From a virus: 64,000 nt of DNA. The notes under the pieces are model-generated. The model saw only the letters and a program-made list of their open reading frames with translations. It was not told the DNA's origin and did no database searches. The stretch's first letter is position 1; the number at the start of each line of letters is the position of its first letter. The stretch is taken from the IMG/VR virus record IMGVR_UViG_3300017917_003388, positions 62,001 to 126,000 of that record, one strand, 5' to 3'. This document shows, in pieces, positions 2,107 to 56,688 of this stretch. The position numbers and the translations under genes were made by a program.

Positions 2107-3012
2107 TTATACGTTAATTACACGATCCCAAGCTGAGATATGTAATCTTGTTAATCCTCTAAACATATATTTCTTACTCATTTCTAATACAAATTGAGTA
2201 CGTTCATGGAAGTCAGTTTGACTATCTAAACCTGGCATACAAACAATGTTTTTAAGTGGTATTTTAAATGGTTCAATAAAATCACGGAATATTTCCTTAA
2301 CATCATCTTCAGTTGAAATAACAAACTTAAATTGATAGTTATGGTGTTCCATAATACGTTGAATAGCTGCAGGAACTATTCTTTGTTTCTCAGTCATACC
2401 TGAGTTGGATAGCTTAGGTGAACAGTTGATTTGGTCTAGTAGACTAAATAGTGGATGGTCAATTATGATTGTACCATTAGTTTCTATTTCGTAATAAGGT
2501 CCGTTTTTAACATAGATAAAATTATTATAATCTTTTTTATGACCATGTAATGACGGATAATCTTCATATCCTACTATGTCAATCCCTTGATTGTCAATCC
2601 AATATTTAGTAAAATTAACAATGGCTTCTTGATGTCCTTTAATTGTAGGTTCTCCACCTGTCCAAATGATATGGATAGTACCATTTCTAATCTGTTCATA
2701 GATACCCTGCTCTTTCCATTGATCAATTAGGTATTGGAAATCTTTTTCTTCACCTCTCCATAACCATTGAGAAGTACTATCACAAGTCCAAGTTGCTTTA
2801 CCTTCTAACTCTAAATCGCCTTTGAATATTTCGCCATCTTCTAATGATTTTTCTTTAGCTAATTGGTTAGTAAACTTACGAGACATACCGCAAGTTAAGT
2901 TACAAATACCTAAACGAATGAAATATGATGGTATACCTGTTGAAAAACCTTCCCCTTGGACTGAAAAAAAATCACTTGATATGAGTAACTTGTTTGGATC
3001 TATTTTTGACAT
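2107..3012 (-). CDS. queE: QueE, 7-carboxy-7-deazaguanine synthase (radical SAM)
   Basis: The protein has 301 residues. QueE rearranges 6-carboxy-tetrahydropterin to 7-carboxy-7-deazaguanine, the step between QueD and QueC. The family signature SVQGEG (residues 17-22) and the FIRLGICNLTC strand-loop (31-41) are clear, as is WTGGEPT further on, the SAM-binding glycine motif. The [4Fe-4S] cysteines are unusual: C37 and C41 keep the first spacing, but the expected third Cys two residues later is displaced to C77 (WTCDS) by an insertion of about 33 residues. The protein is also longer than typical QueE (about 210-240). queD lies just upstream, with queC and the DpdA-like gene further up, which supports a preQ0 pathway used for DNA modification. 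Confidence 0.92.
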   Translation of the reverse strand: MSKIDPNKLLISSDFFSVQGEGFSTGIPSYFIRLGICNLTCGMSRKFTNQLAKEKSLEDGEIFKGDLELEGKATWTCDSTSQWLWRGEEKDFQYLIDQWKEQGIYEQIRNGTIHIIWTGGEPTIKGHQEAIVNFTKYWIDNQGIDIVGYEDYPSLHGHKKDYNNFIYVKNGPYYEIETNGTIIIDHPLFSLLDQINCSPKLSNSGMTEKQRIVPAAIQRIMEHHNYQFKFVISTEDDVKEIFRDFIEPFKIPLKNIVCMPGLDSQTDFHERTQFVLEMSKKYMFRGLTRLHISAWDRVINV

Positions 3013-3039
3013 ATTTATTTTAATTTATTATTTATAAAA

Positions 3040-3630
3040 TCATCCTTTTTTGGATATATTTTGTTTTCTATCATCATACTCTATAATTCCTTTATTTAAT
3101 GCATATTGTGATATTTCATATCTTCTTTCTAAATTAAAAGCATTCCACTCTTTAGTCGAAATACTTTCTGCTAAACATTCAGTCCAACAATTTGGAGTTT
3201 CATAAATTGTTACTTTATGAATTTTTAAACCAGTTAAAGCGTCTTTATATAAAGTATTAGATAATATTTCCATTGCTAAAAATACTTCTTTAGCAATATT
3301 TTCTACTGATGGATTACAATATTCTCCTGCTCCATTTAAACTCATTAACCATAATTTAGTACCATATTCTTTTGTAGTCTCAATCAACTTATAATCATGT
3401 GGGTTTAAAATCATTCCATGATCTAAAATATCATCAATCCATTGGCAAAATACTCTTTTTATTTCTTTAAAATCAATAGCATACCCTATTTCTTCCATGT
3501 TTTCAAAACTAAAAGTTAATTCATATAAATAAGTATGCCCATGAATATTATAACATTTCATAAATTCATTCATAACTCTATGACCTGAATCAAAATTGCC
3601 TTTTCGACTTATGTATTGTATTTTTTTCAT
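3040..3630 (-). CDS. queD: QueD, 6-carboxy-5,6,7,8-tetrahydropterin synthase
   Basis: The protein has 196 residues of the 6-pyruvoyl-tetrahydropterin synthase fold. QueD converts 7,8-dihydroneopterin triphosphate to 6-carboxytetrahydropterin. The zinc ligands are H17 (in FDSGHR) and H30/H32 (HGHTY); C26 in CYNIHGH gives the CxxxHGH arrangement that marks QueD rather than eukaryotic PTPS. The late motif ETPNCWTEC matches the substrate-binding Glu region. It is longer than usual (about 120-140), with extra C-terminal residues. The next gene downstream is queE, 27 bases away. No GTP cyclohydrolase (FolE) is seen in this window, so the first precursor must come from the host or from elsewhere in the genome. 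Confidence 0.92.
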   Translation of the reverse strand: MKKIQYISRKGNFDSGHRVMNEFMKCYNIHGHTYLYELTFSFENMEEIGYAIDFKEIKRVFCQWIDDILDHGMILNPHDYKLIETTKEYGTKLWLMSLNGAGEYCNPSVENIAKEVFLAMEILSNTLYKDALTGLKIHKVTIYETPNCWTECLAESISTKEWNAFNLERRYEISQYALNKGIIEYDDRKQNISKKG

Positions 3631-3646
3631 AAATTAAATATGTTGA

Positions 3647-4306
3647 TTAATTTTTATATTTCCAAATATAACCATATGCTGTTTTTTGGATTCCTCTACA
3701 ACAAAAACATAAACCACTATTGTGGAAACCCAAATTTTTTGTAATATCTTTAAAAGATTCCCATTCTTTAATAAAGATTCCATCTAAACTATATTGAAGG
3801 ATAGGTAAACATCTTTTCCCTTTCATATTAATTTTTTTATCTTCAGGGAATTTTTTTCCTTTTTTAGATAATGATATTTTTAATTTTATTTCATCAGAAT
3901 ATTTTCTTCCTATAGCTTTAGAAGACATTTTTTGTTTAGTTTCTTCACTATGTTTTCTTCCTTTATTTCCTATCCCTATTTTCTTTCTATGTTCTTTAGA
4001 TTTTGGCCCTCCACCAACATCATATAAATTACAAAATAAAACTCTTTTCCAATTCCCCTTAGATTGATTAAGATAGTATTGTTTCCAATATATTTCTCGT
4101 TCATTTAATTGTTCATTAGAACATTCTTCAACTATTTCAAAAATATGATTTTCAGGGCCATATTTTTTAAGTGAATTATAAAGTTTGGGTTGTTGTTTAC
4201 AAGTTAAATTTTTATAACTATATTTCCATCTAATTTCTATATCTTTAGCTTGACCAATATATATTTTTCCTTTTGGATTTGTGATTTTATAAATTCCTAT
4301 ACTCAT
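3647..4306 (-). CDS. GIY-YIG homing endonuclease with NUMOD motifs
   Basis: The protein has 219 residues. The N-terminal GIY-YIG domain begins GIYKITNPKGKIYIGQ (residues 4-19), with the family Arg in IEIRWK and the metal-binding Glu in NEREIYWK (about residue 70). A NUMOD3-type DNA-binding stretch follows (SKEHRKKIGIGNKGRKHS, about 103-120, then a second copy), and the C-terminus is a NUMOD1-like helix-turn-helix ending TAYGYIWKYKN. It is a free-standing homing endonuclease inserted between queD and the thioredoxin gene. It has its own copy of the recurrent promoter element at 4317-4329. Confidence 0.88.
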   Translation of the reverse strand: MSIGIYKITNPKGKIYIGQAKDIEIRWKYSYKNLTCKQQPKLYNSLKKYGPENHIFEIVEECSNEQLNEREIYWKQYYLNQSKGNWKRVLFCNLYDVGGGPKSKEHRKKIGIGNKGRKHSEETKQKMSSKAIGRKYSDEIKLKISLSKKGKKFPEDKKINMKGKRCLPILQYSLDGIFIKEWESFKDITKNLGFHNSGLCFCCRGIQKTAYGYIWKYKN

Positions 4307-4316
4307 AATTGTTATT

Positions 4317-4329
4317 TTATTATAAATAT
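4317..4329 (-). promoter_or_regulatory. Putative late promoter element
   Basis: Exact 13-mer (ATATTTATAATAA on the coding strand), about 10 bases upstream of the GIY-YIG endonuclease start at 4306. Promoter role inferred from recurrence. Confidence 0.5.
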
Positions 4330-4367
4330 ATAAAATCCAAAATCTACTACCCAGTTACAAAATATAT

Positions 4368-4616
4368 TTATCCATTAATTAAATTATTTAATTGTGATGA
4401 ATTTAATGCTCCAACATAACGACGTACTTCATTACCATTTTCTAAAATAATAGTTGTTGGAATACTTTTAACATTAAATTTACTAGTATATACAGCATCA
4501 TAATCTACATCTATTTTATTTATTTGGGTTCCGGATGTTGATGCTTGTTCTATAACTGGATTTGTTTTTTGGCAGGATGGACACCACCCTGCCGTAAAAT
4601 ATAATACTTGTTTCAT
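4368..4616 (-). CDS. Thioredoxin-like protein
   Basis: An 82-residue single-domain thioredoxin fold. The redox-active motif WCPSC is at residues 11-15 and the cis-proline loop at SIPTT (about 52-56); both are needed for thiol-disulfide exchange. The probable role is to re-reduce the phage ribonucleotide reductase encoded upstream at 8670-11788, as T4 NrdC does for its host system; this partner is inferred. The gene is 3 bases from the UVR-motif gene and is probably co-transcribed with it. The size is slightly below bacterial thioredoxin (about 105) and close to phage versions. Confidence 0.88.
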   Translation of the reverse strand: MKQVLYFTAGWCPSCQKTNPVIEQASTSGTQINKIDVDYDAVYTSKFNVKSIPTTIILENGNEVRRYVGALNSSQLNNLING

Positions 4617-7196: not shown

Positions 7197-7991
7197 TTAT
7201 TTGGGAAGGATTTTTTTAAATTCTTTTATATTAAATTCGATACATTCTAATTGTCTATTATTTGTTTTTTTATTAAACCAAACTTCTATTTTTTCTTCAG
7301 GTTTATTCCAACAATTATCAAATGTATATTTTAATTCTTTTAAACCAAAAATAATTGGATTACTAGTATCTATAGTTTTAATAAATGAATATTGTGGGTT
7401 TTGGTATGCTCTGAATTCTAAAAAATTTGAAGTACCCAACATATGATGATGTATGTGGTTTTGGATTATATTATTTTTTTTTAATTGATTTATAAAATAT
7501 ATTCTTCCCATCATTTTAGATACTGATAGATTTTCATGTGGGAAAAAATCTTGATATGCTGTTGAACTATGATTAAATGCAATAGCTTCAACTCCTAAAT
7601 CAACATATCGTTTATATAATGAAGAGCCTATTTCATAATCAGTACATTGGATCACAGCCATTAATTTAGTTGTTTCTGGGAGTGAATTTTTTATATTTAC
7701 CCAATGTTTAGCATTTTCTAAACTTAATAAAGCATCGTTCCATACATCTGGAATAACAAATATATCTGGTTGGAGTTCATTAATAAATTCAATTAATTGT
7801 TGTTCGGTAAATGAATCTCCTTCAAATAATCCATTATCTGCAATTATAAATCTACCATCTTTTTTAGCATTTTTATAATATTCCTTATATGGTTCAGATT
7901 TAAACCAATAGGTGGGTAGGCAAAATTCATAATCATTCCATTCCTTGCTTTTGTCCAAAAGACATAGAGGTAATTCGTGTGATACTTTCAT
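7197..7991 (-). CDS. dpdA: DpdA-like 7-deazaguanine DNA transglycosylase
   Basis: The protein has 264 residues resembling phage DpdA, a member of the tRNA-guanine transglycosylase superfamily that exchanges guanine in DNA for preQ0. Features that fit are a TIM-barrel-like order of strands, IIADNGLFEGDS at residues 49-60 (the catalytic/substrate-loop Asp region), VIPDVWND near 98, MAVIQCTDYEIG near 130 and a His-rich HIHHHMLGTSN near 190, which may bind metal. It is much shorter than bacterial DpdA and in the range of phage forms. Its place beside queC, queE and queD is the strongest support. A role on tRNA cannot be excluded from sequence alone. Confidence 0.72.
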   Translation of the reverse strand: MKVSHELPLCLLDKSKEWNDYEFCLPTYWFKSEPYKEYYKNAKKDGRFIIADNGLFEGDSFTEQQLIEFINELQPDIFVIPDVWNDALLSLENAKHWVNIKNSLPETTKLMAVIQCTDYEIGSSLYKRYVDLGVEAIAFNHSSTAYQDFFPHENLSVSKMMGRIYFINQLKKNNIIQNHIHHHMLGTSNFLEFRAYQNPQYSFIKTIDTSNPIIFGLKELKYTFDNCWNKPEEKIEVWFNKKTNNRQLECIEFNIKEFKKILPK

Positions 7992-11804: not shown

Positions 11805-11817
11805 TGATAATAAATAT
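11805..11817 (-). promoter_or_regulatory. Putative promoter element, variant
   Basis: ATATTTATTATCA on the coding strand, a near match to the recurrent 13-mer, about 17 bases upstream of nrdB. Confidence 0.35.
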
Positions 11818-13199
11818 TATAAATCCATTTTTACAAATTGATTTCTAAGAAATTCTTTTTCATCATCAAAAACGCCTATACTATCAGGTTTAGATGATGA
11901 TTTTTCATATATATCCAAATCTAACTCATCTTCATCTATCTCTATATGTCCTGTTTTAGTATCTATAGTTGAACTATATGTTACTCCATCTACTCCATAT
12001 CTATTTCCCATAATATGCCATCTTCCTGTTCCATTTAATCTATCTTTTCTTCCTCTAGCTAAAGATATAATTATATCACCGATCATTATCTTATCAAAAC
12101 TTCCAGCAATGTGGCTACTTTCTAATATATCTTTTTCTGCTCCTGATCTATTAGCTTGAGATGGGGATATTATAGGAATATCTAATTCTTTGGCTAATCC
12201 TTTAGCATCCGTATATACATCATCTATATCGTCTTTTCTTTCTTTTCTAGAATTTCTATTTTTCAATAAATCTAAATAGTCAATAAATACAGCATCTATA
12301 TTAAATGTTGAATCTTCATTTCTTTCTTGTTCTAATACTTGATTTATATGAGTTTCGATTGTTGATAATGAAGCTCGTTTTGGTGAATATCCCTTTATTA
12401 TTAATTTACCAGGAATAGATGACATTATTTCATCTACTTTATCTCTATGTTTATCAATTTCGTCGACAGGTATGCCTGTAAAATAAGCATCAAATCTTTT
12501 CCCAACATATGATTCCCCCAATTCTAATGCATAATAAATAACATTATATCCCAATCTCATAGCTTCAGCAGCCATAGCTACTATAGACCATGATTTACCT
12601 CCTTTAGGATTACCAAATATTAAAACCAAATCCCCCTTACCATACCCACCCTGGGTTATCTTATTGAAAGTATTCCAAGGAAATGGAATAGGAGAACGTT
12701 CTTCATCTCTATACCTAGTTTCAACATCTTTATTATATTCATGTCCTATATTTCTATCTTGTCCTGATTTCAAAGCATTATTAACAACACGTCTAATTGA
12801 GTCATAGTCTCCTTCTTTTAATAAGTCAACTGAATTTAATAATGCATTTTTTAATTGTTGGTTTTTACAAAAATTAGTAAATTCAGTTTTAATATATGGT
12901 AAGTCGTTACCTTCAGATAAAGAATAAGCTTCTTTAAGTTGTTCTTTTATTGATATCTGAAGGATATCATTTTCAACTCTTTTCAGTTCGGTTTTTAACA
13001 CATCCATTGTTGGATTACAATGGTATTTATTATAATATTTGATAGATTCATTAACTATCCATTTTTGAGCTGAATTTGAGAAATAATCTTCATTTAATAT
13101 ATCATTAACATTTTGTAAAAATGATTTATCTGTTAATAATGCAGATATAACCTTTGTTTGGAATGAAATTCCATAATTTTCTAAACTATTTAAAGTCAC
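11817..13199 (-). CDS. gp41: Replicative DNA helicase, gp41/DnaB-like
   Basis: The protein has 460 residues. An N-terminal helical domain (about 1-150) precedes a RecA-type ATPase core. Walker A is GNPKGGKS (residues 196-203) and Walker B lies in AVFIDYLDLL (about 305-314); SQANRSG and the downstream Arg-rich ISLARGRKDR fit the DnaB-family sensor and arginine-finger regions. It should unwind DNA 5'-3' ahead of the polymerase as a hexamer. Its place next to RNase H and UvsX matches the T4 replication block. No primase is seen in this window. Confidence 0.88.
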   Translation of the reverse strand: MTLNSLENYGISFQTKVISALLTDKSFLQNVNDILNEDYFSNSAQKWIVNESIKYYNKYHCNPTMDVLKTELKRVENDILQISIKEQLKEAYSLSEGNDLPYIKTEFTNFCKNQQLKNALLNSVDLLKEGDYDSIRRVVNNALKSGQDRNIGHEYNKDVETRYRDEERSPIPFPWNTFNKITQGGYGKGDLVLIFGNPKGGKSWSIVAMAAEAMRLGYNVIYYALELGESYVGKRFDAYFTGIPVDEIDKHRDKVDEIMSSIPGKLIIKGYSPKRASLSTIETHINQVLEQERNEDSTFNIDAVFIDYLDLLKNRNSRKERKDDIDDVYTDAKGLAKELDIPIISPSQANRSGAEKDILESSHIAGSFDKIMIGDIIISLARGRKDRLNGTGRWHIMGNRYGVDGVTYSSTIDTKTGHIEIDEDELDLDIYEKSSSKPDSIGVFDDEKEFLRNQFVKMDL

Positions 13200-13216: not shown

Positions 13217-14260
13217 TTAATTAATTTTTAATTTATTATATCTATGTAGTTTTATCCAAGTATTTCTAAGCCAAAATTCTACATTTTTCAAAATGTGTCC
13301 TAATCCATCGCTGTTATATAAGCTAATAAATTTAGGAATATCTAATGTAGGATTTACAAAGTTAGATAAAATTAATATTTCTTTTTTTTCATCTTCATCA
13401 ATCATTGGGTTATCTAAACTCATTATTTTCCTATTTATTTTCAATTGTTCATAATTAAAAATTATTTTTGAATATAATATATGATCTTTATATTTGGATT
13501 CACAAATTTTAAATATATCTTCTAATGATATTTTATCACAACCAAAAATCTCAGGAAATAATTTTTCTATCTTTTTTTTACCTAATCCCTTAATACCTTC
13601 TATTTTATCTGAAGTATCACCAGTTAGTGTTCTATATGTTAGAAAATTATAAGGATAAACACCGAATCTATTTTTTAAATCAGCAGAATAATAAAATTTT
13701 TTTTCCATAGAAGCATACACAGTGATATTATCATCTATTAATTGAAAAAAATCTTTATCTGATGAAACTACATATACCTTATCTCCATTTTTTGATAATT
13801 CCTTACTCATAAAAGCTATAACATCATCTGCTTCAACTTTATCTAAAGAAATTATATTAACAGGAAGACATTTTAAATAATGAATTAATCTAGATATTTG
13901 ATTTAATTTGGATTCATCTTCATCTTCAATGTTATCAAAAACATATTTATTTACTCGAGTTGTATTTCGTCCTGATTTATATTCGGGGAGTAGGTTCTTT
14001 CTATTAATAGTAGAACCTACTCCATCAAATATAATTTGTACAGATGTTGGGTTAATCTGATTAACTAATGAACCTAAAGATCTAAGAAAACCCCCTAACC
14101 CACCAATATGAATACCATTTGTATTAACATAATTTAAAACAGCAAAATTTCTATAAAATAGATTTAAACCATCAATAATCAAAATACGTTGAGTATCATT
14201 TGGTGATAGACTGTCGTCTTTGATGTTTTCTAAAATTTTTAATAAATCTTTATGTTCCAT
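13217..14260 (-). CDS. rnh: RNase H / 5'-3' flap exonuclease (FEN family)
   Basis: The protein has 347 residues of the FEN/5'-nuclease fold. Metal-binding acids are in LIIDGLNLFYR (about 28-38), VQIIFDGVGS (about 74-83), EADDVIAF (about 143-150) and SSDKDFFQL (about 166-174). The helix-hairpin-helix region GIKGLGKKKIEKLFPEIFG (about 220-238) contacts DNA. By analogy with T4 Rnh it should remove RNA primers and flaps from Okazaki fragments. It lies 17 bases upstream of the helicase gene and 12 bases downstream of uvsX. Confidence 0.9.
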   Translation of the reverse strand: MEHKDLLKILENIKDDSLSPNDTQRILIIDGLNLFYRNFAVLNYVNTNGIHIGGLGGFLRSLGSLVNQINPTSVQIIFDGVGSTINRKNLLPEYKSGRNTTRVNKYVFDNIEDEDESKLNQISRLIHYLKCLPVNIISLDKVEADDVIAFMSKELSKNGDKVYVVSSDKDFFQLIDDNITVYASMEKKFYYSADLKNRFGVYPYNFLTYRTLTGDTSDKIEGIKGLGKKKIEKLFPEIFGCDKISLEDIFKICESKYKDHILYSKIIFNYEQLKINRKIMSLDNPMIDEDEKKEILILSNFVNPTLDIPKFISLYNSDGLGHILKNVEFWLRNTWIKLHRYNKLKIN

Positions 14261-14272
14261 ATAGTTATTTTT

Positions 14273-15346
14273 TTATTCCTCTTCTATTAAAGGAATAGAA
14301 TCTTTACTTTCTTCCCATTCTGAAGTATCTTCTATTAAGTCTACATCCACGCTACCTAATATACTAACCCATTCATTTGCATATTTTTTCTTATATGATG
14401 CTATATCTTGTTCATTGATAAAACCATGAATTGTAGCTATTACTGTACTTTTTGTTTGGAGTCCAGTAACGTGGTTTTTATCACAAGCCACTTTAGTACG
14501 AACAGCAAATTCAACTTCTTTTCCATTTTTAGTAGCTTTAATTTTACTAGTACCACTATTAGTAATATTACCAAATGTAAGCACAATCGAAGCATCTAAA
14601 AACATTGTCTCACCATTTTTCATTTTCATTTTGGGTTGAGCCATGATATTTTCAGCAGGAGCAACCCATATTTTATTAATAGCTACTAATGAATTTGTAT
14701 ATGGAGAGTTTTCTTTTCTTGATAAAGGAAAACGTTGATTAATAAAATTACCAAATTGCTGAGACATAGCTCCAGCATTCCACATTGGATTATTTTTGTT
14801 TGCTTCTACACTCATTTTACAAGGAATAGAACCTATTGAATCCCAAAAGAAACATAAATCATAAGGTAAATTACCTTTACGTTGTTCATCTAGTAAATCA
14901 GCTATAAATTCAGCTACATCTTCAATTGTATTTAAAGAACTTCTATCAGCATATATAAAAAATCCTTTATAATCTGTAACTTCTCCTGTATTTTCATCAA
15001 TTACATCTTCAATTTGGAATCCCATCTGTTTAGCATGTTCCCAAGACCATTTCATTTCAGTAATTATAAATACTGGTAATATTCCCATTTTCTGAGCACT
15101 AATTGCTAATTCAAGTAAAGCTGTAGTTTTACCTGTATTACTATGTCCTCTTAACAATGTAATATGACCTAATGGAGCACCAGGGATAGAAATAGAATCT
15201 TGTAATGCTTTTGAAAATTGAATCCATTTTTGCTCTTTAAACTTAACAGTTGAATTTAATGATTTTTTTTCTTTAAACTTATCAAGATTAAAGTCCGATT
15301 TCAGTTCAGCACTAACTGCTGCTGAAAGTGATGATTTTTTAGCCAT
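14273..15346 (-). CDS. uvsX: UvsX-like RecA-family recombinase
   Basis: The protein has 357 residues. The RecA-type ATPase has Walker A GHSNTGKT (residues 67-74), a catalytic Glu in FIITEMKWSW (about 96-105) and a Walker B strand in LCFFWDSIGSIP. T4 UvsX builds filaments on single-stranded DNA for strand exchange and recombination-dependent replication. The acidic C-terminus (DLIEDTSEWEESKD) resembles the regulatory tails of UvsX and RecA. Its neighbours are the gp32-like SSB (11 bases upstream) and RNase H. Confidence 0.9.
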   Translation of the reverse strand: MAKKSSLSAAVSAELKSDFNLDKFKEKKSLNSTVKFKEQKWIQFSKALQDSISIPGAPLGHITLLRGHSNTGKTTALLELAISAQKMGILPVFIITEMKWSWEHAKQMGFQIEDVIDENTGEVTDYKGFFIYADRSSLNTIEDVAEFIADLLDEQRKGNLPYDLCFFWDSIGSIPCKMSVEANKNNPMWNAGAMSQQFGNFINQRFPLSRKENSPYTNSLVAINKIWVAPAENIMAQPKMKMKNGETMFLDASIVLTFGNITNSGTSKIKATKNGKEVEFAVRTKVACDKNHVTGLQTKSTVIATIHGFINEQDIASYKKKYANEWVSILGSVDVDLIEDTSEWEESKDSIPLIEEE

Positions 15347-15356
15347 AAAATTTTAA

Positions 15357-16190
15357 TTAATCTTTTTCGTCAAATAATTCTTCAAATTTTTTAGACGATG
15401 ATTTTTTACCAGAAGGTGGGGTTATTTTTTGTTGAGGATTTTCATTTATAAATGGAGACTCAGTTTCATCTGAAGTTTCATCATTTTCGGTTTCATCTGA
15501 GGTTTCATCTTCAGGATTTAACCAATTTTGTAAAATTCCTTTCATTTGATCAAAACTCATTTTAAATGTACTTTGAAAATCAAGAATATTAGTTTGTTCT
15601 TCTAACCATTTTTCAACTTCTGATTTATCTGTACTTAATGGGGAAGTTTTAGGTTTAATACGAATAGTCGATTTTAATCCTTTTTTTCCACCAATATCAC
15701 CAATAACTGCTTCAAGAGTAAAATCTCTACCATCTGTGATACTAGTATAATCACCATAATCTTCATCATCAGCAATTCCTAATAATTGCATGTATATCTC
15801 CTTCCCAAATTCCCAAAGACGTACTCCTTTATCTTCTTCACCTCTAACTATAACTGGAGCGAATACTCTCATTTTTGGTTCTAATTTTCTAGCTAAGGAC
15901 CAACTTTCTTTATCGTTAGTTGATTTAAGTTGTTTACAAAATTCTACAATAGGATCTTTTTCTCCCCAGTTTGTTAAAGCATATAATGGAAATTTAGCAA
16001 ACCCGTAATGAACAAACACTTCAGTAAATGGGTTGTTTTTGTCAAATTTTGAAGGAACAATACGAATTTGATATTTACCTTCTTGTTTTGGTTTCCATAG
16101 ATATTTACTATAATCTATTTTTTCTTTGTCTTTTTTCTGCCCTTGCGATTGAAGAGCACTTAATTTACTTTTTATTGATTTTAAATCCAT
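15357..16190 (-). CDS. gp32: Single-stranded DNA-binding protein, gp32-like
   Basis: The protein has 277 residues. The core (about 25-215) has the gp32 pattern: DYSKYLWKPKQEGKYQIRIV, then VHYGFAKFPLYALTNWGE, an OB-fold surface rich in aromatic and basic residues. An acidic, low-complexity tail (about 220-260, DETSDETENDETSDETES) is the usual interaction arm for helicase, polymerase and recombinase. The Cys/His zinc site of T4 gp32 is not obvious. It is the first gene of the uvsX-rnh-gp41 run. No clear recurrent promoter is seen, but the 135-bp gap upstream is AT-rich. Confidence 0.85.
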   Translation of the reverse strand: MDLKSIKSKLSALQSQGQKKDKEKIDYSKYLWKPKQEGKYQIRIVPSKFDKNNPFTEVFVHYGFAKFPLYALTNWGEKDPIVEFCKQLKSTNDKESWSLARKLEPKMRVFAPVIVRGEEDKGVRLWEFGKEIYMQLLGIADDEDYGDYTSITDGRDFTLEAVIGDIGGKKGLKSTIRIKPKTSPLSTDKSEVEKWLEEQTNILDFQSTFKMSFDQMKGILQNWLNPEDETSDETENDETSDETESPFINENPQQKITPPSGKKSSSKKFEELFDEKD

Positions 16191-16325: not shown

Positions 16326-16775
16326 TTATAGATTAATTATTTTATATAATGTAGTATTTAATTGTTTGAAATTTCCATGTTGGGTTAATAATATACTATT
16401 TCTATAGTTACCCCAATTTATAGGATATGAGACATCTAAATATCCATCATTTAATGTTTTGATTAATTCATTTAAAGCATTTATTGAATATAAAACATTA
16501 TATTCTTTTTTGCGGTGAACTAATATTGTGTTAGAAAGTATATTACTTATATTACCTTGTTCTACATTGTATGTAACAACATATTCGTTTGTATCTTTAA
16601 CAAATAAAATAAATAACTTATTATACATAATTTCATATTTAGAAATTAGGTGATCTAATAATTTATCTAAATTATCATTAGAAGTAAAGGTTGCAAATAA
16701 TCTGTTATTCATATTGTTATAATCGATATATAAATCATATTGATTATAAATATTATATTCTTCACATAAAGTCAT
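16326..16775 (-). CDS. Unassigned protein downstream of the polymerase
   Basis: A 149-residue protein starting MTLCEEYNIYNQYDLYIDYN, Asn/Tyr/Leu-rich and probably alpha/beta, with no recognisable motif. It follows the polymerase gene by 1 base and is probably co-translated with it. Context suggests a replication accessory role, but that rests on position only. Confidence 0.6.
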   Translation of the reverse strand: MTLCEEYNIYNQYDLYIDYNNMNNRLFATFTSNDNLDKLLDHLISKYEIMYNKLFILFVKDTNEYVVTYNVEQGNISNILSNTILVHRKKEYNVLYSINALNELIKTLNDGYLDVSYPINWGNYRNSILLTQHGNFKQLNTTLYKIINL

Positions 16776-16776
16776 A

Positions 16777-18060
16777 TTAATTCAAAATCATAGAATTATA
16801 ATTAATCCCATTAGTTATTTTAATATCTAAGTTAAATTTTTTAAATATATCTAATATTTGTGATAAAATATCTTCATCTTGTTTACAAAAATCCAATAAA
16901 ATAGAATCATAAGTATATAATACTATTTTACTATTTCTATCGATTAATAGTTTCAAAATATCCCACATTATTAATATATTTGTTGATGTTTCTAAATTCT
17001 GCAATACATAATTAAATAACTTTTGTGGGGATAAATTTAAATTTTTATCAAAAATATCACCTGATATATCACATTTTATATAACCTTGTTTATTATATGT
17101 TTCCCACAATTCATTAATATAATTATGGGTTAAATTAAAAAATGGAATATCTTTATACTCATGGTTTATTCCTCCATATAATTGTTTAAACATTAGAATT
17201 TTAGCATCATTTACATCTATATTTGCTATTTCAGATAAATAAACATATGGATTTTTATTTTGAAAATCAAATTTTACCAATTGGGATACTAATGTTGGAT
17301 GATATGCTTTGATATCTATTTCTATAAATTTATCATTACTTGGGATAAATGATTCTCTACATCCATTATCTTTATTTAAGGCAGCAAAATTAATATTGTT
17401 AAATCGATTAGATGGTCTTCCGGTTGTGTTATACAAATTATACTGAGTGTATATAAAATCATCATTAATAGAAAAATGTGGGTTGTCTAATTTAAAATAA
17501 GTATTGAATATACTTGGATTTATTTTTATACCACTTTGTTCTATTAAATAGAAAACATTTATTCTTTTATTATTAAAAGATTTATTATTAACATAACAAT
17601 ATTTTTTTATTTTATCAAATATGTTTTCACATACTTCAAAATGTTTAACTAATGGGATTATTTTATTTATAGAAGGAACATATCCATATCTTTGAAAGAA
17701 TTTATATATTTGATAATTTTCTTCCATAATATCATCACCAACCATATTAAATGATATATCTATTATATTATTTAAACAAAAATGATATTTAAATGTTTTA
17801 GCATTTCTAACATATATATATTTAAAATTCTTAAATAAATTCTCTATATAATTTATATCAACAGAAAATGATTCAGAATGATCTACACATATTATGTAAC
17901 CTTTACTATCAACATTTATTGGTTTTAAATATAATAAGGATATACCATTAAATAATGGATGTAGGTTATTATCTAAATATATAGGTTCAATAAAAACTTC
18001 ACTATAATTTAAATCACAAAATTCATCTAATTGTTTACTATTTTCTATAATATAAAACAT
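16777..18060 (-). CDS. Divergent family-A-like DNA polymerase
   Basis: The protein has 427 residues from the ATG at 18060; an in-frame TTG further up (18102) is unlikely because an A-rich leader (AAGAAAAAAGTT) directly precedes this ATG. The C-terminal half matches the family A palm and fingers: TGRPSNRFNNINFAALNK (about 213-230) resembles the TGR motif, EIDIKAYHPTLVSQL (D249) is motif A, KILMFKQLYGG (about 287-297) is motif B and YTYDSILLD (D385) is motif C. Motif A lacks the usual Glu (AYH in place of QIE) and motif C has DS in place of DE. Residues 1-180 may be a decayed 3'-5' exonuclease domain. T4 itself uses a family B polymerase, so this is a notable replacement. Confidence 0.65.
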   Translation of the reverse strand: MFYIIENSKQLDEFCDLNYSEVFIEPIYLDNNLHPLFNGISLLYLKPINVDSKGYIICVDHSESFSVDINYIENLFKNFKYIYVRNAKTFKYHFCLNNIIDISFNMVGDDIMEENYQIYKFFQRYGYVPSINKIIPLVKHFEVCENIFDKIKKYCYVNNKSFNNKRINVFYLIEQSGIKINPSIFNTYFKLDNPHFSINDDFIYTQYNLYNTTGRPSNRFNNINFAALNKDNGCRESFIPSNDKFIEIDIKAYHPTLVSQLVKFDFQNKNPYVYLSEIANIDVNDAKILMFKQLYGGINHEYKDIPFFNLTHNYINELWETYNKQGYIKCDISGDIFDKNLNLSPQKLFNYVLQNLETSTNILIMWDILKLLIDRNSKIVLYTYDSILLDFCKQDEDILSQILDIFKKFNLDIKITNGINYNSMILN

Positions 18061-18105
18061 AACTTTTTTCTTAAAGATAAATACAATAATTTTGTAAATC
18101 AATTT

Positions 18106-53713: not shown

Positions 53714-54730
53714 TCAATTTAATTGTCGAATTATATTTCTATAAGCAGATTCCATTTTGTTATATAATGGGGTAAAATCTTCATCATTAAGTCCTGTACT
53801 ATCTTGAATATCAAAATCATAAAATCCAGATAATGATGATCCACTAGATGTTGGTGATACCATATTTGCATTTGCATCTATATCATTTACATAATCATAA
53901 AATCCATCTTGAAAATTCACACATATTAATTTAATGATTTCTTTCAATTCATCTGAGGATATTTTTTTCTTATAAAAATCAACCCAAGCTTGTTGGATTT
54001 TAGGATTAGTCATTAAATCTACTTCTCTCGACCATCTAGATAAATTCTCATTTTCCGTTATTAGTTTTTTTTTTAAATCACTTTCGGTAATTAAACCAGC
54101 TCGTTTTTGCATACGAAGAAATGATTCATTAACAACAACAGTTTCAGCAACATCTGAAATATCTTCATCATCATCCATTTCTATATCAGCATTTTTCATA
54201 GCTGACTTCACACCACCTGATAGTGATGATTGACCAGGTTTGCGTCCACGTTTTAATAATCCTTTAGCTCTTAATTTAAGTTTTTGTATAAATTCTGGAC
54301 CTAATATTGAGATTTCTTCTTCACTAGGTTCATAATCTGGATTTTGTTCTAGTTTAGAATTTATATCTAAGGCCAGTTTTGTTTTATCAGATACTGGTCT
54401 ACCTTTAACTCCTGTGGATTGAGGTTTTTCTTGTTTAGGAGTAGATAAATCACCTTTAACAAATATACCAGCATCCATAAAATCGCGAACTTTAGGATTT
54501 ATAGCTTGCATACCTGATTTTCCTAATATTCTAGCTAGTTCAGGTTGAGGAATACCAACATCCCCTGCTTTTTCAACAGCGTCTATCATATCTCCATACC
54601 ATGTTCCCGCATATAATTCTTTAGCAGCTGATGCTTTTTCTGGGTCTCCAAGTTTTATGTTAGTAGAAATACGAGCCATTTCATCAAGTTCGGATTCTAC
54701 CATTTCTCTAATAAGTTGTCTTAATTTCAT
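53714..54730 (-). CDS. Tagged internal protein with both tag types
   Basis: A 338-residue protein. N-terminal tag MKLRQLIREMVESELDEMAR, then a domain (16-95: LGDPEKASAAKELYAGTWYG, GIPQPELARILGKSGMQAIN) shared with 51310-52158. After a basic linker (SLKLRAKGLLKRGRKPGQ-like text near 150-165) comes the second tag, VVNESFLRMQKRAGLITESD (about 199-218), closely followed by KKKLITENENL. The C-terminal 110 residues are a separate helical domain. LITE and VNE are sites of the form cut by gp21-type proteases. It is probably packaged in the head and processed there. Confidence 0.65.
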   Translation of the reverse strand: MKLRQLIREMVESELDEMARISTNIKLGDPEKASAAKELYAGTWYGDMIDAVEKAGDVGIPQPELARILGKSGMQAINPKVRDFMDAGIFVKGDLSTPKQEKPQSTGVKGRPVSDKTKLALDINSKLEQNPDYEPSEEEISILGPEFIQKLKLRAKGLLKRGRKPGQSSLSGGVKSAMKNADIEMDDDEDISDVAETVVVNESFLRMQKRAGLITESDLKKKLITENENLSRWSREVDLMTNPKIQQAWVDFYKKKISSDELKEIIKLICVNFQDGFYDYVNDIDANANMVSPTSSGSSLSGFYDFDIQDSTGLNDEDFTPLYNKMESAYRNIIRQLN

Positions 54731-54746
54731 TGTTTAATAAATTATT

Positions 54747-54759
54747 TTATTATAAATAT
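54747..54759 (-). promoter_or_regulatory. Putative late promoter element
   Basis: Exact 13-mer on the coding strand, about 16 bases upstream of the start at 54730. Confidence 0.52.
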
Positions 54760-54777
54760 ATTAAATTATTCGAGGAA

Positions 54778-56097
54778 TTACAGTGTTAGTGTTCTTAAAA
54801 TACTTTCAGCTACATATAGACCTTGGCTTCCAGCTACAGTAATACCGCGAGCACTTAATGCATCACCTACAAAATGTATATTTGGATATTCAATTAATGA
54901 TAGATCATCATAATTTACTAGCGGTTCAGGACTTAAATATTTTACTTCAGGAATATATATACCCCAATCATCTCCGAATTCAAATACTTCATTCATTTGG
55001 TCAATAAAATCTTCAATATAGTTAAAATATTTCCCCATAGCTGATCTTACAGGAAATAAATCTATAATTTGAGTAGCTGATACTTCATTACCTTCAGAAG
55101 TTGTTGATACTTTTCTAGATGGTGAGTAATATAATCCTTTACCGTTTATTTGACACTTTTGAACAACTTCTCTTGACCATTCAAACGGATTTTCAATACC
55201 TTTAATTTCCATTAAAATACCAAAGTTAGTCATATCATTGCGATATTCTTCACCTTTTTTAGCATGACCATTGTAACTAATATCACCATAAGTCTCTTCA
55301 ACAGCCACATAAGCTGCATTATTGTTAGTACAGAATGAACGTAGAGATACGTTGTCAAATTTTTGATACAATTTAAAATCGTATGATACATCAATTAATT
55401 TCTGAAAATATTTTTGTGGTGCTTCAAAACGAACACCTATTTGTACTGATTTAGGTTCGGTTGGTAGTTTATAATCATCTGCTAATTGTTTACCAAAGTC
55501 AATTCCACTTTTACCAACTGCAAATATAATAGTATCTCCAAAGATTGTATTATACCATTCTTTATTATCTTCATTATAAGAATAAGTTAAATAATTAGTT
55601 TCAAAATTTATATTTTTTACTTCTGTTTCCCATAAAAAATTCACACCCTTACTTACAAGATAGTCATACCAACGTTTTCCTATTTCGTGTAAATAATCGG
55701 TACCAATGTGGTATACTGGAAATAAACGAAGACCGAAGTGAGGTTTAATAAAGTCAGGTTCGGATTGGGGATCTGATTTCATAATTTGGGAGGGATCTGG
55801 ATGGAATCTAGTTACCATTTGAATAACTTGGTCCATTAACTCCATTGCTTTTTCTTCACCACAATATTTACTTAATACACCCCCAATTGCTGTGTGGTAT
55901 GTAAGTTTACCATCGCTCCACAGACCACAACCCATAAATCCTGTCATTACTTCTTCAGGTTTACGAACGTATGGATCACTACCTTTATCAATAACCGTAA
56001 TTAATTCTCCAGGGTAACCATTATCTATTAATTTGGTAGCAGCATTGATACCTGCAACACCTGCTCCTACTATTACTATTTTTTTATTATCTTTCAT
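54778..56097 (-). CDS. FAD-dependent dehydrogenase (COG2509-like)
   Basis: The protein has 439 residues. The Rossmann start KKIVIVGAGVAGINAATKLI (5-24) binds the FAD ADP part; GCGLWSDGKLTYHTAIGG (about 57-74) and the ending IHFVGDALSARGITVAGSQG with LYVAESIL are typical of the uncharacterised FAD-dependent dehydrogenases of the COG2509 type, usually with an NAD(P)H or electron-carrier partner. Whether it reduces a metabolite, a modified base or a protein is unknown. It is an auxiliary metabolic gene placed among internal-protein genes. It carries no tag. Confidence 0.8.
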   Translation of the reverse strand: MKDNKKIVIVGAGVAGINAATKLIDNGYPGELITVIDKGSDPYVRKPEEVMTGFMGCGLWSDGKLTYHTAIGGVLSKYCGEEKAMELMDQVIQMVTRFHPDPSQIMKSDPQSEPDFIKPHFGLRLFPVYHIGTDYLHEIGKRWYDYLVSKGVNFLWETEVKNINFETNYLTYSYNEDNKEWYNTIFGDTIIFAVGKSGIDFGKQLADDYKLPTEPKSVQIGVRFEAPQKYFQKLIDVSYDFKLYQKFDNVSLRSFCTNNNAAYVAVEETYGDISYNGHAKKGEEYRNDMTNFGILMEIKGIENPFEWSREVVQKCQINGKGLYYSPSRKVSTTSEGNEVSATQIIDLFPVRSAMGKYFNYIEDFIDQMNEVFEFGDDWGIYIPEVKYLSPEPLVNYDDLSLIEYPNIHFVGDALSARGITVAGSQGLYVAESILRTLTL

Positions 56098-56117
56098 TTG
56101 ATTATTTAAATTTATAT

Positions 56118-56336
56118 CTAAAAGTTATTTACTGAATCCTGAAGTATAGTGATAATTTCTTCACGATTAACTAATCCACCTTCACCATCTATTATAATCA
56201 TATCTTCCATACCTTCATCTTTGATATGACGCATTAAATCATAATCAGACATTAAATTAGAATTATTATTTTTGTTTTTTTCTAATTGAGATTCAGATTT
56301 AGGAAATATTTTATCGATTTTTTTATTATTTTTCAT
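56118..56336 (-). CDS. Small unassigned acidic protein
   Basis: A 72-residue protein with a basic/polar N-terminus (KNNKKIDKIFPKSESQLEKN) and an acidic C-terminal part (YDLMRHIKDEGMEDMIIIDG). No family recognised. It overlaps the SLOG-fold gene by 11 bases and ends 20 bases before the FAD enzyme gene, so it belongs to that transcript. Confidence 0.5.
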   Translation of the reverse strand: MKNNKKIDKIFPKSESQLEKNKNNNSNLMSDYDLMRHIKDEGMEDMIIIDGEGGLVNREEIITILQDSVNNF

Positions 56337-56688
56337 TTATATAATTAATTATTTTATATGGTTTATTTAATTGTTCACATAAAGAAAGAGCATGTTGTGT
56401 TCCCTTAGAAATACCATCCCAAAATGCAATAGCACAATCACAATTATTTATTATATCTTTATTTCGAATAATTCCTGCTTTTTTCCCATATTGTTCCCAA
56501 TCTGGAAGAAATATTAGTGTTTTAATGTTATTTTTAAGTGCCCATCTTTCTCCTAAAGAATCAGCACCTTTTGCAGCACCTGATATAACTAAAGATATTT
56601 TAGATTTATATGGTTCTAAAGATTTCTCCAATAAATCATAATTTGTAAAACTTCTACTACCAATTATTGCTAATTTTAATTTACCCAT
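56326..56688 (-). CDS. SLOG-fold protein (DUF2493 / YspA-like)
   Basis: A 120-residue protein. KLAIIGSRSFTNYDLLEKSL (4-23), LVISGAAKGADSLGERWALK (34-53) and CDCAIAFWDGISKGTQHALS (about 84-103) are the three core motifs of the DUF2493/YspA branch of the SLOG superfamily, which binds nucleotide-like ligands and sugars. Members occur near NAD- or ADP-ribose-related and defence or counter-defence genes. Its neighbours here are the FAD dehydrogenase (downstream) and a pyrimidine-dimer-glycosylase-like gene (overlap 13 bases). The ligand is unknown. Confidence 0.75.
   Translation of the reverse strand: MGKLKLAIIGSRSFTNYDLLEKSLEPYKSKISLVISGAAKGADSLGERWALKNNIKTLIFLPDWEQYGKKAGIIRNKDIINNCDCAIAFWDGISKGTQHALSLCEQLNKPYKIINYINEK

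What the first reader, a model, noticed from the sequence alone, without database searches (positions are those of the whole stretch)
16777..18060. A family-A-like DNA polymerase in a T4-type replisome
Seen: TGR motif, motif A, motif B and motif C in order in a 427-residue protein, next to UvsX, gp32-like, RNase H and gp41-like genes. T4 phages use a family B enzyme. Motif A reads DIKAYHP instead of DYSQIE, which looks part-way to the DxxSLYP of family B, and motif C is YDS. No exonuclease motif is clear.
Basis: partly seen in the sequence, partly recalled or inferred. Interest (0 to 1): 0.68.

Follow-up and report, generated by a model that had tools for sequence, protein, structure and literature searches.

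The report
Extra, stripped-down phage DNA polymerase
This phage gene makes a small second DNA polymerase of the Pol I kind, already named divPolA1 in 2024, which works beside a normal T4-type polymerase rather than replacing it and always travels with an uncharacterised partner gene.

Summary
The gene is real: minus strand, window 18060-16777, 427 residues. It belongs to the published divPolA1 family (Yutin et al. 2024), divergent family-A polymerases that phages carry in addition to a regular DNA polymerase. The AlphaFold2 model (pLDDT 92) matches only family-A polymerases such as Klenow, not family B. Both catalytic aspartates and the dNTP-contact residues are invariant in 159 relatives. The thumb is missing and the exonuclease sites are gone. 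The 'part-way to family B' reading fails, and so does the claim that a family-A enzyme replaces the T4-type one. The same 174.7-kb genome encodes an intact 861-aa family-B polymerase 5.6 kb outside the window, with clamp loader and DnaG primase; 13 of 14 large genomes with this gene carry another polymerase. Points not in the published text: at least 581 viral-contig relatives in one scan; glutamate-to-histidine at the sugar-selecting 'steric gate' in every member; and a strict partner gene (window 16326-16775) of unknown function. That partner was found in exactly the same phage records (6 of 50,697), and 35 of 36 loci found through it also carry divPolA1. Most likely role: a non-proofreading, low-processivity accessory polymerase for lagging-strand or gap synthesis with the operon's 5' nuclease. 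This role is inferred.

The parts
16777..18060 (-). divPolA1-type divergent family-A DNA polymerase, 427 aa, ATG start at 18060
17611..18060 (-). N-terminal domain (residues 1-150): 3'-5' exonuclease-like layout with no conserved DxE/D/YxxxD acidic set; conserved H34, H61, E63, K88 and D101 instead
   Evidence: comparison with the published family in PMC11348598
17416..17424 (-). TGR motif (T213-R215; R215 corresponds to Klenow R668)
   Evidence: R215 invariant in 159/159
17296..17316 (-). Motif A DIKAYHP (D249-P255): catalytic D249; H254 at the steric-gate position (Klenow E710)
   Evidence: D and H 77/77 in the unbiased set
17173..17202 (-). Motif B K287-G296 (K758, F762 and Y766 equivalents kept; R754 equivalent lost)
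16987..17001 (-). QNLET (Q354-T358): Klenow Q849 equivalent plus the family-specific invariant E357-T358
16903..16911 (-). Motif C YDS (Y384-S386): catalytic D385
   Evidence: D 159/159; the third residue is only Ala or Ser
16326..16775 (-). p149: conserved partner gene of unknown function, directly downstream
   Evidence: AF2 model pLDDT 82.7 with no PDB match at E<0.1
15357..16190 (-). gp32-type single-stranded DNA-binding protein
   Evidence: PF08804 3.3e-12, phrog_1192
14273..15346 (-). UvsX/RecA-type recombinase
   Evidence: phrog_97 5.4e-18
13217..14260 (-). 5'-3' exonuclease (FEN / T4 RNase H type)
   Evidence: PF02739 3.7e-33, phrog_107
11817..13199 (-). DnaB/gp41-type replicative helicase
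   Evidence: phrog_19 2.3e-75

Best explanation
It is a member of the divPolA1 family: a catalytically competent, non-proofreading family-A polymerase that has lost the thumb, encoded next to a conserved partner (p149) in the SSB-UvsX-5' nuclease-helicase operon of a large T4-related phage. The phage's bulk replicase is its separate family-B polymerase with clamp loader and DnaG primase. divPolA1, with p149 probably helping it hold DNA, does short, distributive synthesis at the fork: most likely filling gaps and finishing Okazaki fragments together with the operon's 5' nuclease, so that the two genes act like a Pol I cut into pieces. SHOWN by computation: family, fold, conserved catalytic residues, missing thumb, missing exonuclease residues, operon, coexistence with PolB, tight co-occurrence with p149. 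INFERRED: that it polymerises DNA, that p149 binds it, and the lagging-strand or gap-filling role (about 0.45 for that role on its own).
For: 36% identity over 98% of the length to the immuto phage protein that founds divPolA1. AF2 pLDDT 92.3; Foldseek best hits are all family A, with Klenow 8oo6 at TMq 0.76, E 4e-16. Catalytic D249 and D385 plus R215, K287, Y295 and Q354 invariant. The profile alignment to Klenow skips about 92 residues (236-328) between query positions 192 and 200, which is the thumb. No acidic exonuclease set. Order divPolA1 > p149 > SSB > UvsX > 5' nuclease > helicase kept in near and distant relatives. Intact PolB with clamp loader and DnaG in the same genome; another polymerase in 13 of 14 large records. 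Natural xDS motif C with activity: phage Tt72 PolA (PMC9324360).
Against: No biochemistry exists for any divPolA1 in the literature found. The dNTP-contacting R754 equivalent is lost and the steric-gate Glu is His, so the activity may be weak or altered. Operon membership fits recombination or repair synthesis as well as Okazaki maturation. p149 is not always immediately adjacent (1.3-5 kb away in marine relatives), which weakens a simple two-subunit reading. The window protein alone does not reach PF00476.
Confidence: 0.6

Rival explanations
1. Primer-handling enzyme: the altered sugar gate lets divPolA1 make or extend RNA or mixed RNA-DNA primers for PolB, like a Pol alpha or mitochondrial RNA polymerase acting as primase.
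For: Glu to His at the steric gate in every member and xDA/xDS motif C recalling the HDS of T7-type RNA polymerases (recalled, not tested). Missing thumb. Linked to the helicase gene.
Against: The genome and the immuto phage both have a DnaG primase with zinc-finger and Toprim-like features. His is bulky and may still block ribose. F291, the ddNTP/dNTP-type phenylalanine, is kept in nearly all.
Confidence: 0.15
2. Recombination or damage-bypass polymerase: extends UvsX-made D-loops or copies past lesions or modified bases, tolerant because it lacks proofreading.
For: Same operon as UvsX and SSB; no exonuclease; open active site expected without a thumb. A DpdA-like DNA base-modification gene is about 10 kb away in many relatives.
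Against: The operon also holds the replicative helicase and 5' nuclease. Nothing in the sequence is specific to bypass.
Confidence: 0.25
3. Non-catalytic scaffold: a pseudo-polymerase that binds primer-template and organises the fork.
For: Loss of exonuclease residues, thumb, the R754 equivalent and the gate Glu.
Against: Both metal-binding Asp and the K758, Y766, R668 and Q849 equivalents are invariant in 159 relatives down to 25% identity to the window, which is hard to explain without catalysis.
Confidence: 0.08
4. Sole or main replicative polymerase.
For: It is the polymerase inside the helicase-SSB operon; Yutin et al. note that the regular polymerase sits in a less replication-specific neighbourhood.
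Against: Intact PolB with proofreading and clamp loader in the same genome. A regular polymerase in 13 of 14 large records, the exception a 119-kb fragment. No proofreading and no thumb for a genome of about 175 kb.
Confidence: 0.07

Closest known systems
divPolA1 (Yutin et al. 2024, PMC11348598; founding protein in Flavobacterium phage immuto, QQO91919.1)
   Same: 36% identity over the full length, same active-site residues, truncated thumb, dead exonuclease, same gene order, extra to a regular polymerase
   Different: Regular polymerase here is PolB, in immuto PolA; motif C is YDS here, YDA in immuto. The published text does not discuss p149 or the invariant His gate
E. coli DNA polymerase I, Klenow fragment (family A)
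   Same: Fold, TGR motif, motifs A/B/C, Q849 equivalent
   Different: About 13% identity; no thumb; no exonuclease residues; E710 to His, E883 to Ser, H881 to Tyr; 5' nuclease on a separate gene
T4 gp43 family-B polymerase
   Same: Works in the same kind of replisome (gp32, UvsX, gp41, RNase H types)
   Different: Different family; the phage has its own gp43-type enzyme elsewhere
Thermus phage Tt72 PolA (PMC9324360)
   Same: Phage family-A enzyme with natural Asp-Ser motif C, shown to be active
   Different: Tt72 keeps the gate Glu, thumb and strong proofreading

Membership tests
divPolA1 | Full-length homology to the founding immuto protein | tested here: met
   tblastn E 4e-76, 36% over residues 1-419
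divPolA1 | Palm with conserved catalytic residues | tested here: met
   D249 and D385 invariant; high-confidence model
divPolA1 | Truncated thumb | tested here: met
   8 residues against about 92 in Klenow
divPolA1 | 3'-5' exonuclease with catalytic acids replaced | tested here: met
   By sequence columns only: no conserved acidic set in the exonuclease-like domain; atomic superposition not possible, no coordinates given
divPolA1 | Upstream of conserved replication genes | tested here: met
   p149-SSB-UvsX-5' nuclease-helicase
divPolA1 | Genome also encodes a regular DNA polymerase | tested here: met
   861-aa PolB at genome 53851-56436
Family A DNA polymerase (PF00476) | Pfam match over cut-off | tested here: inconclusive
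   Window protein: none; 8 of 48 relatives at E<0.01; immuto member over cut-off at 43.9 bits
Family A DNA polymerase (PF00476) | Family-A fold | tested here: met
   Foldseek PDB and BFVD: top hits only family A
Family A DNA polymerase (PF00476) | Motif A steric-gate Glu (E710 equivalent) | tested here: not met
   His in all relatives; a departure shared by the divPolA1 branch, and the Glu is accessory rather than essential for catalysis in Tt72 PolA
Family B DNA polymerase (PF00136) | PF00136 profile match | tested here: not met
   In this genome only the separate PolB gene matches
Functioning two-piece Pol I | Polymerase and 5' nuclease act together on Okazaki fragments | not testable with these tools
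   Genes linked; activity needs a bench test

The most novel reading that the evidence does not exclude
divPolA1 and p149 form a two-subunit second polymerase holoenzyme in a large lineage of aquatic T4-related phages: p149, a protein without a recognised fold relative, replaces the lost thumb, and the invariant histidine gate gives the enzyme unusual sugar selectivity used at primer junctions.
Probability: 0.2. Interest if true: 0.65.

Novelty: new member of a known kind. Interest (0 to 1): 0.36.

Why it matters
It settles a tempting misreading: these phages did not swap their T4 polymerase for a family-A one; they run two polymerases. It also shows that divPolA1 is far commoner than the 14 published genomes, has one constant and unusual active-site change, and has a constant uncharacterised companion gene. 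Together these turn 'what is divPolA1 for?' into a two-protein experiment.

Tried and rejected
(1) Primase replacement: attractive because of the gate change, weakened when DnaG was found in immuto and in this genome. (2) Family-B intermediate: no PF00136 match; structure and motifs are family A. (3) p149 as a known T4 protein (RegA or UvsY considered): no Pfam or PDB profile match, only isolated weak PHROG matches in two of 38 members, and no Foldseek hit below E 0.17. (4) Single-sequence search of viral contigs found nothing; only the alignment-based scans worked. (5) hhalign of the family against the immuto regular PolA found no useful alignment. (7) The two published reference proteins (genomes LR796625, MK892584) are not in the held collection, so immuto served as reference.

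Full report
WHAT IS THERE. The gene runs on the minus strand from 18060 (ATG) to 16777 and encodes 427 residues; the plus strand there is not coding. The mechanical ORF starts at a TTG at 18102, but the family N-terminus MFYI aligns with the ATG. The window protein alone matches no Pfam family, no named PHROG and no PDB sequence. By tblastn it matches 6 of 50,697 phage records: four records of Flavobacterium phage immuto (36%, annotated 'DNA polymerase family A'), a 484-kb uncultured phage and Microcystis phage Mel-JY01.

IT IS ALREADY NAMED. Yutin et al. 2024 (PMC11348598) describe exactly the immuto protein and its relatives as divPolA1: a divergent family-A polymerase in 14 phages of 155-190 kb, present in addition to a regular polymerase of family A, B or C. 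They report conserved palm residues, a truncated thumb, lost exonuclease aspartates and conserved replication genes downstream. Only that paper and its preprint in the searched library use the name. Each of those features was tested here and is met, the exonuclease one by sequence columns only.

FAMILY AND FOLD. Seven contigs from bacterial genome assemblies also carry it, four of them nearly full length, mostly flavobacterial or marine. With 48 sequences as input, AlphaFold2 gives pLDDT 92.3 and pTM 0.90. Foldseek returns only family-A polymerases at the top: Plasmodium apicoplast polymerase, Klenow (8oo6, TMq 0.76), KlenTaq, Pol nu and Pol theta in the PDB, and phage PolA in BFVD. Profile against PDB sequences aligns with Klenow only (weak, E 0.03) and shows the thumb gap: query 192 to 200 against Klenow-chain 236 to 328. 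Eight of 48 relatives match PF00476 at E<0.01.

ACTIVE SITE. In 159 relatives (25-58% identity to the window) these are invariant: R215 (Klenow R668), D249 (D705), K287 (K758), Y295 (Y766), Q354 (Q849) and D385 (D882), plus H254 at the E710 steric-gate position and Y384 at H881. F291 (F762) is kept in all but five. The residue after D385 is only Ala or Ser, and the R754 equivalent is Arg in one sequence of 159. The second scan's search pattern contained the His, so the fair count is the first scan: 77 of 77. Loss of E883 is not fatal in itself: phage Tt72 PolA naturally has Ser there and is active (PMC9324360). In that enzyme the E710 equivalent is accessory in vitro while both aspartates are essential. 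The exonuclease-like N-terminal domain has no conserved acidic set.

NOT A REPLACEMENT FOR THE T4 POLYMERASE. The window is bases 62001-126000 of a 174,694-base virus record. At 53851-56436, outside the window, is an 861-aa family-B polymerase with DIE, NSAYFD and YNLRD exonuclease motifs, DFTSLYPS, KILQNALYG and SDTD; PF00136 6.5e-29, PF03104 1.5e-17, phrog_262 1.5e-137. GroES, GroEL and both clamp-loader subunits lie nearby. A DnaG primase (zinc finger and Toprim-like features seen in the sequence) is at about 129.4-130.4 kb. Of 14 large records with divPolA1, 13 have another polymerase: PolB in 10 of 11 IMG/VR records including this one, PolA in immuto, PolB in Mel-JY01, PolB and PolC in the 484-kb phage; the exception is a 119-kb fragment.

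OPERON AND PARTNER GENE. The order divPolA1 > p149 > gp32-type SSB > UvsX > 5' nuclease > DnaB helicase holds in near relatives wherever the contig is long enough. In distant marine and cyanophage-like relatives 36 of 36 eligible loci have p149 and 34-35 have the other genes; an insert of 1.3-5 kb often separates divPolA1 from p149 there. p149 occurs in exactly the same 6 of 50,697 phage records as divPolA1. When p149 alone is used as the query, 35 of 36 loci with enough upstream sequence carry divPolA1. It has no convincing database relatives, and its model (pLDDT 82.7) has no PDB match below E 0.17. The published text does not discuss it; the figures were not available.

MECHANISM. Shown: a conserved polymerase active site without proofreading and without a thumb, linked to SSB, recombinase, 5' nuclease and helicase, in genomes with a full separate replicase. 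Inferred: distributive, short-patch synthesis. Because a primase and a proofreading replicase are present, the missing job in this list is removal and replacement of primers and gap filling, which in bacteria Pol I does with a fused 5' nuclease. Here the 5' nuclease is a separate gene of the same operon. D-loop extension with UvsX is the main alternative. The His gate keeps a primer-handling role open.

VERDICT. Observation confirmed; interpretation partly right. It is a new member of a known family, with two additions worth following: the invariant His gate and the constant companion p149.

Noticed in passing
window 16326-16775 (-): p149, a conserved gene of unknown function that co-occurs with divPolA1 in every data set examined; invariant HRKK and LYxINxLN stretches; no recognised fold relative.
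   Followed up: yes
L205 884-2632 and 3321-4202; L206 complement 2824-4548 and 1255-2151: In two relatives the regular PolB gene is split between motifs B and C, in one by a GIY-YIG-like homing endonuclease ORF, like the split gene 43 known from some T4-type phages (recalled).
   Followed up: partly
window 7197-7991 (-): Relative (32%) of the immuto DpdA-type DNA guanine transglycosylase, hinting at 7-deazaguanine-modified phage DNA; also about 10 kb from divPolA1 in many relatives.
   Followed up: no
L147 1442-2920 and L176 6354-8192: Marine relatives carry a large gene of unknown function between divPolA1 and p149, and the two examples differ; Mel-JY01-like phages carry other genes there.
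   Followed up: no
L014 (LR756508, 484 kb): A huge phage that carries divPolA1, a PolB in pieces and a PolC-type polymerase together.
   Followed up: no
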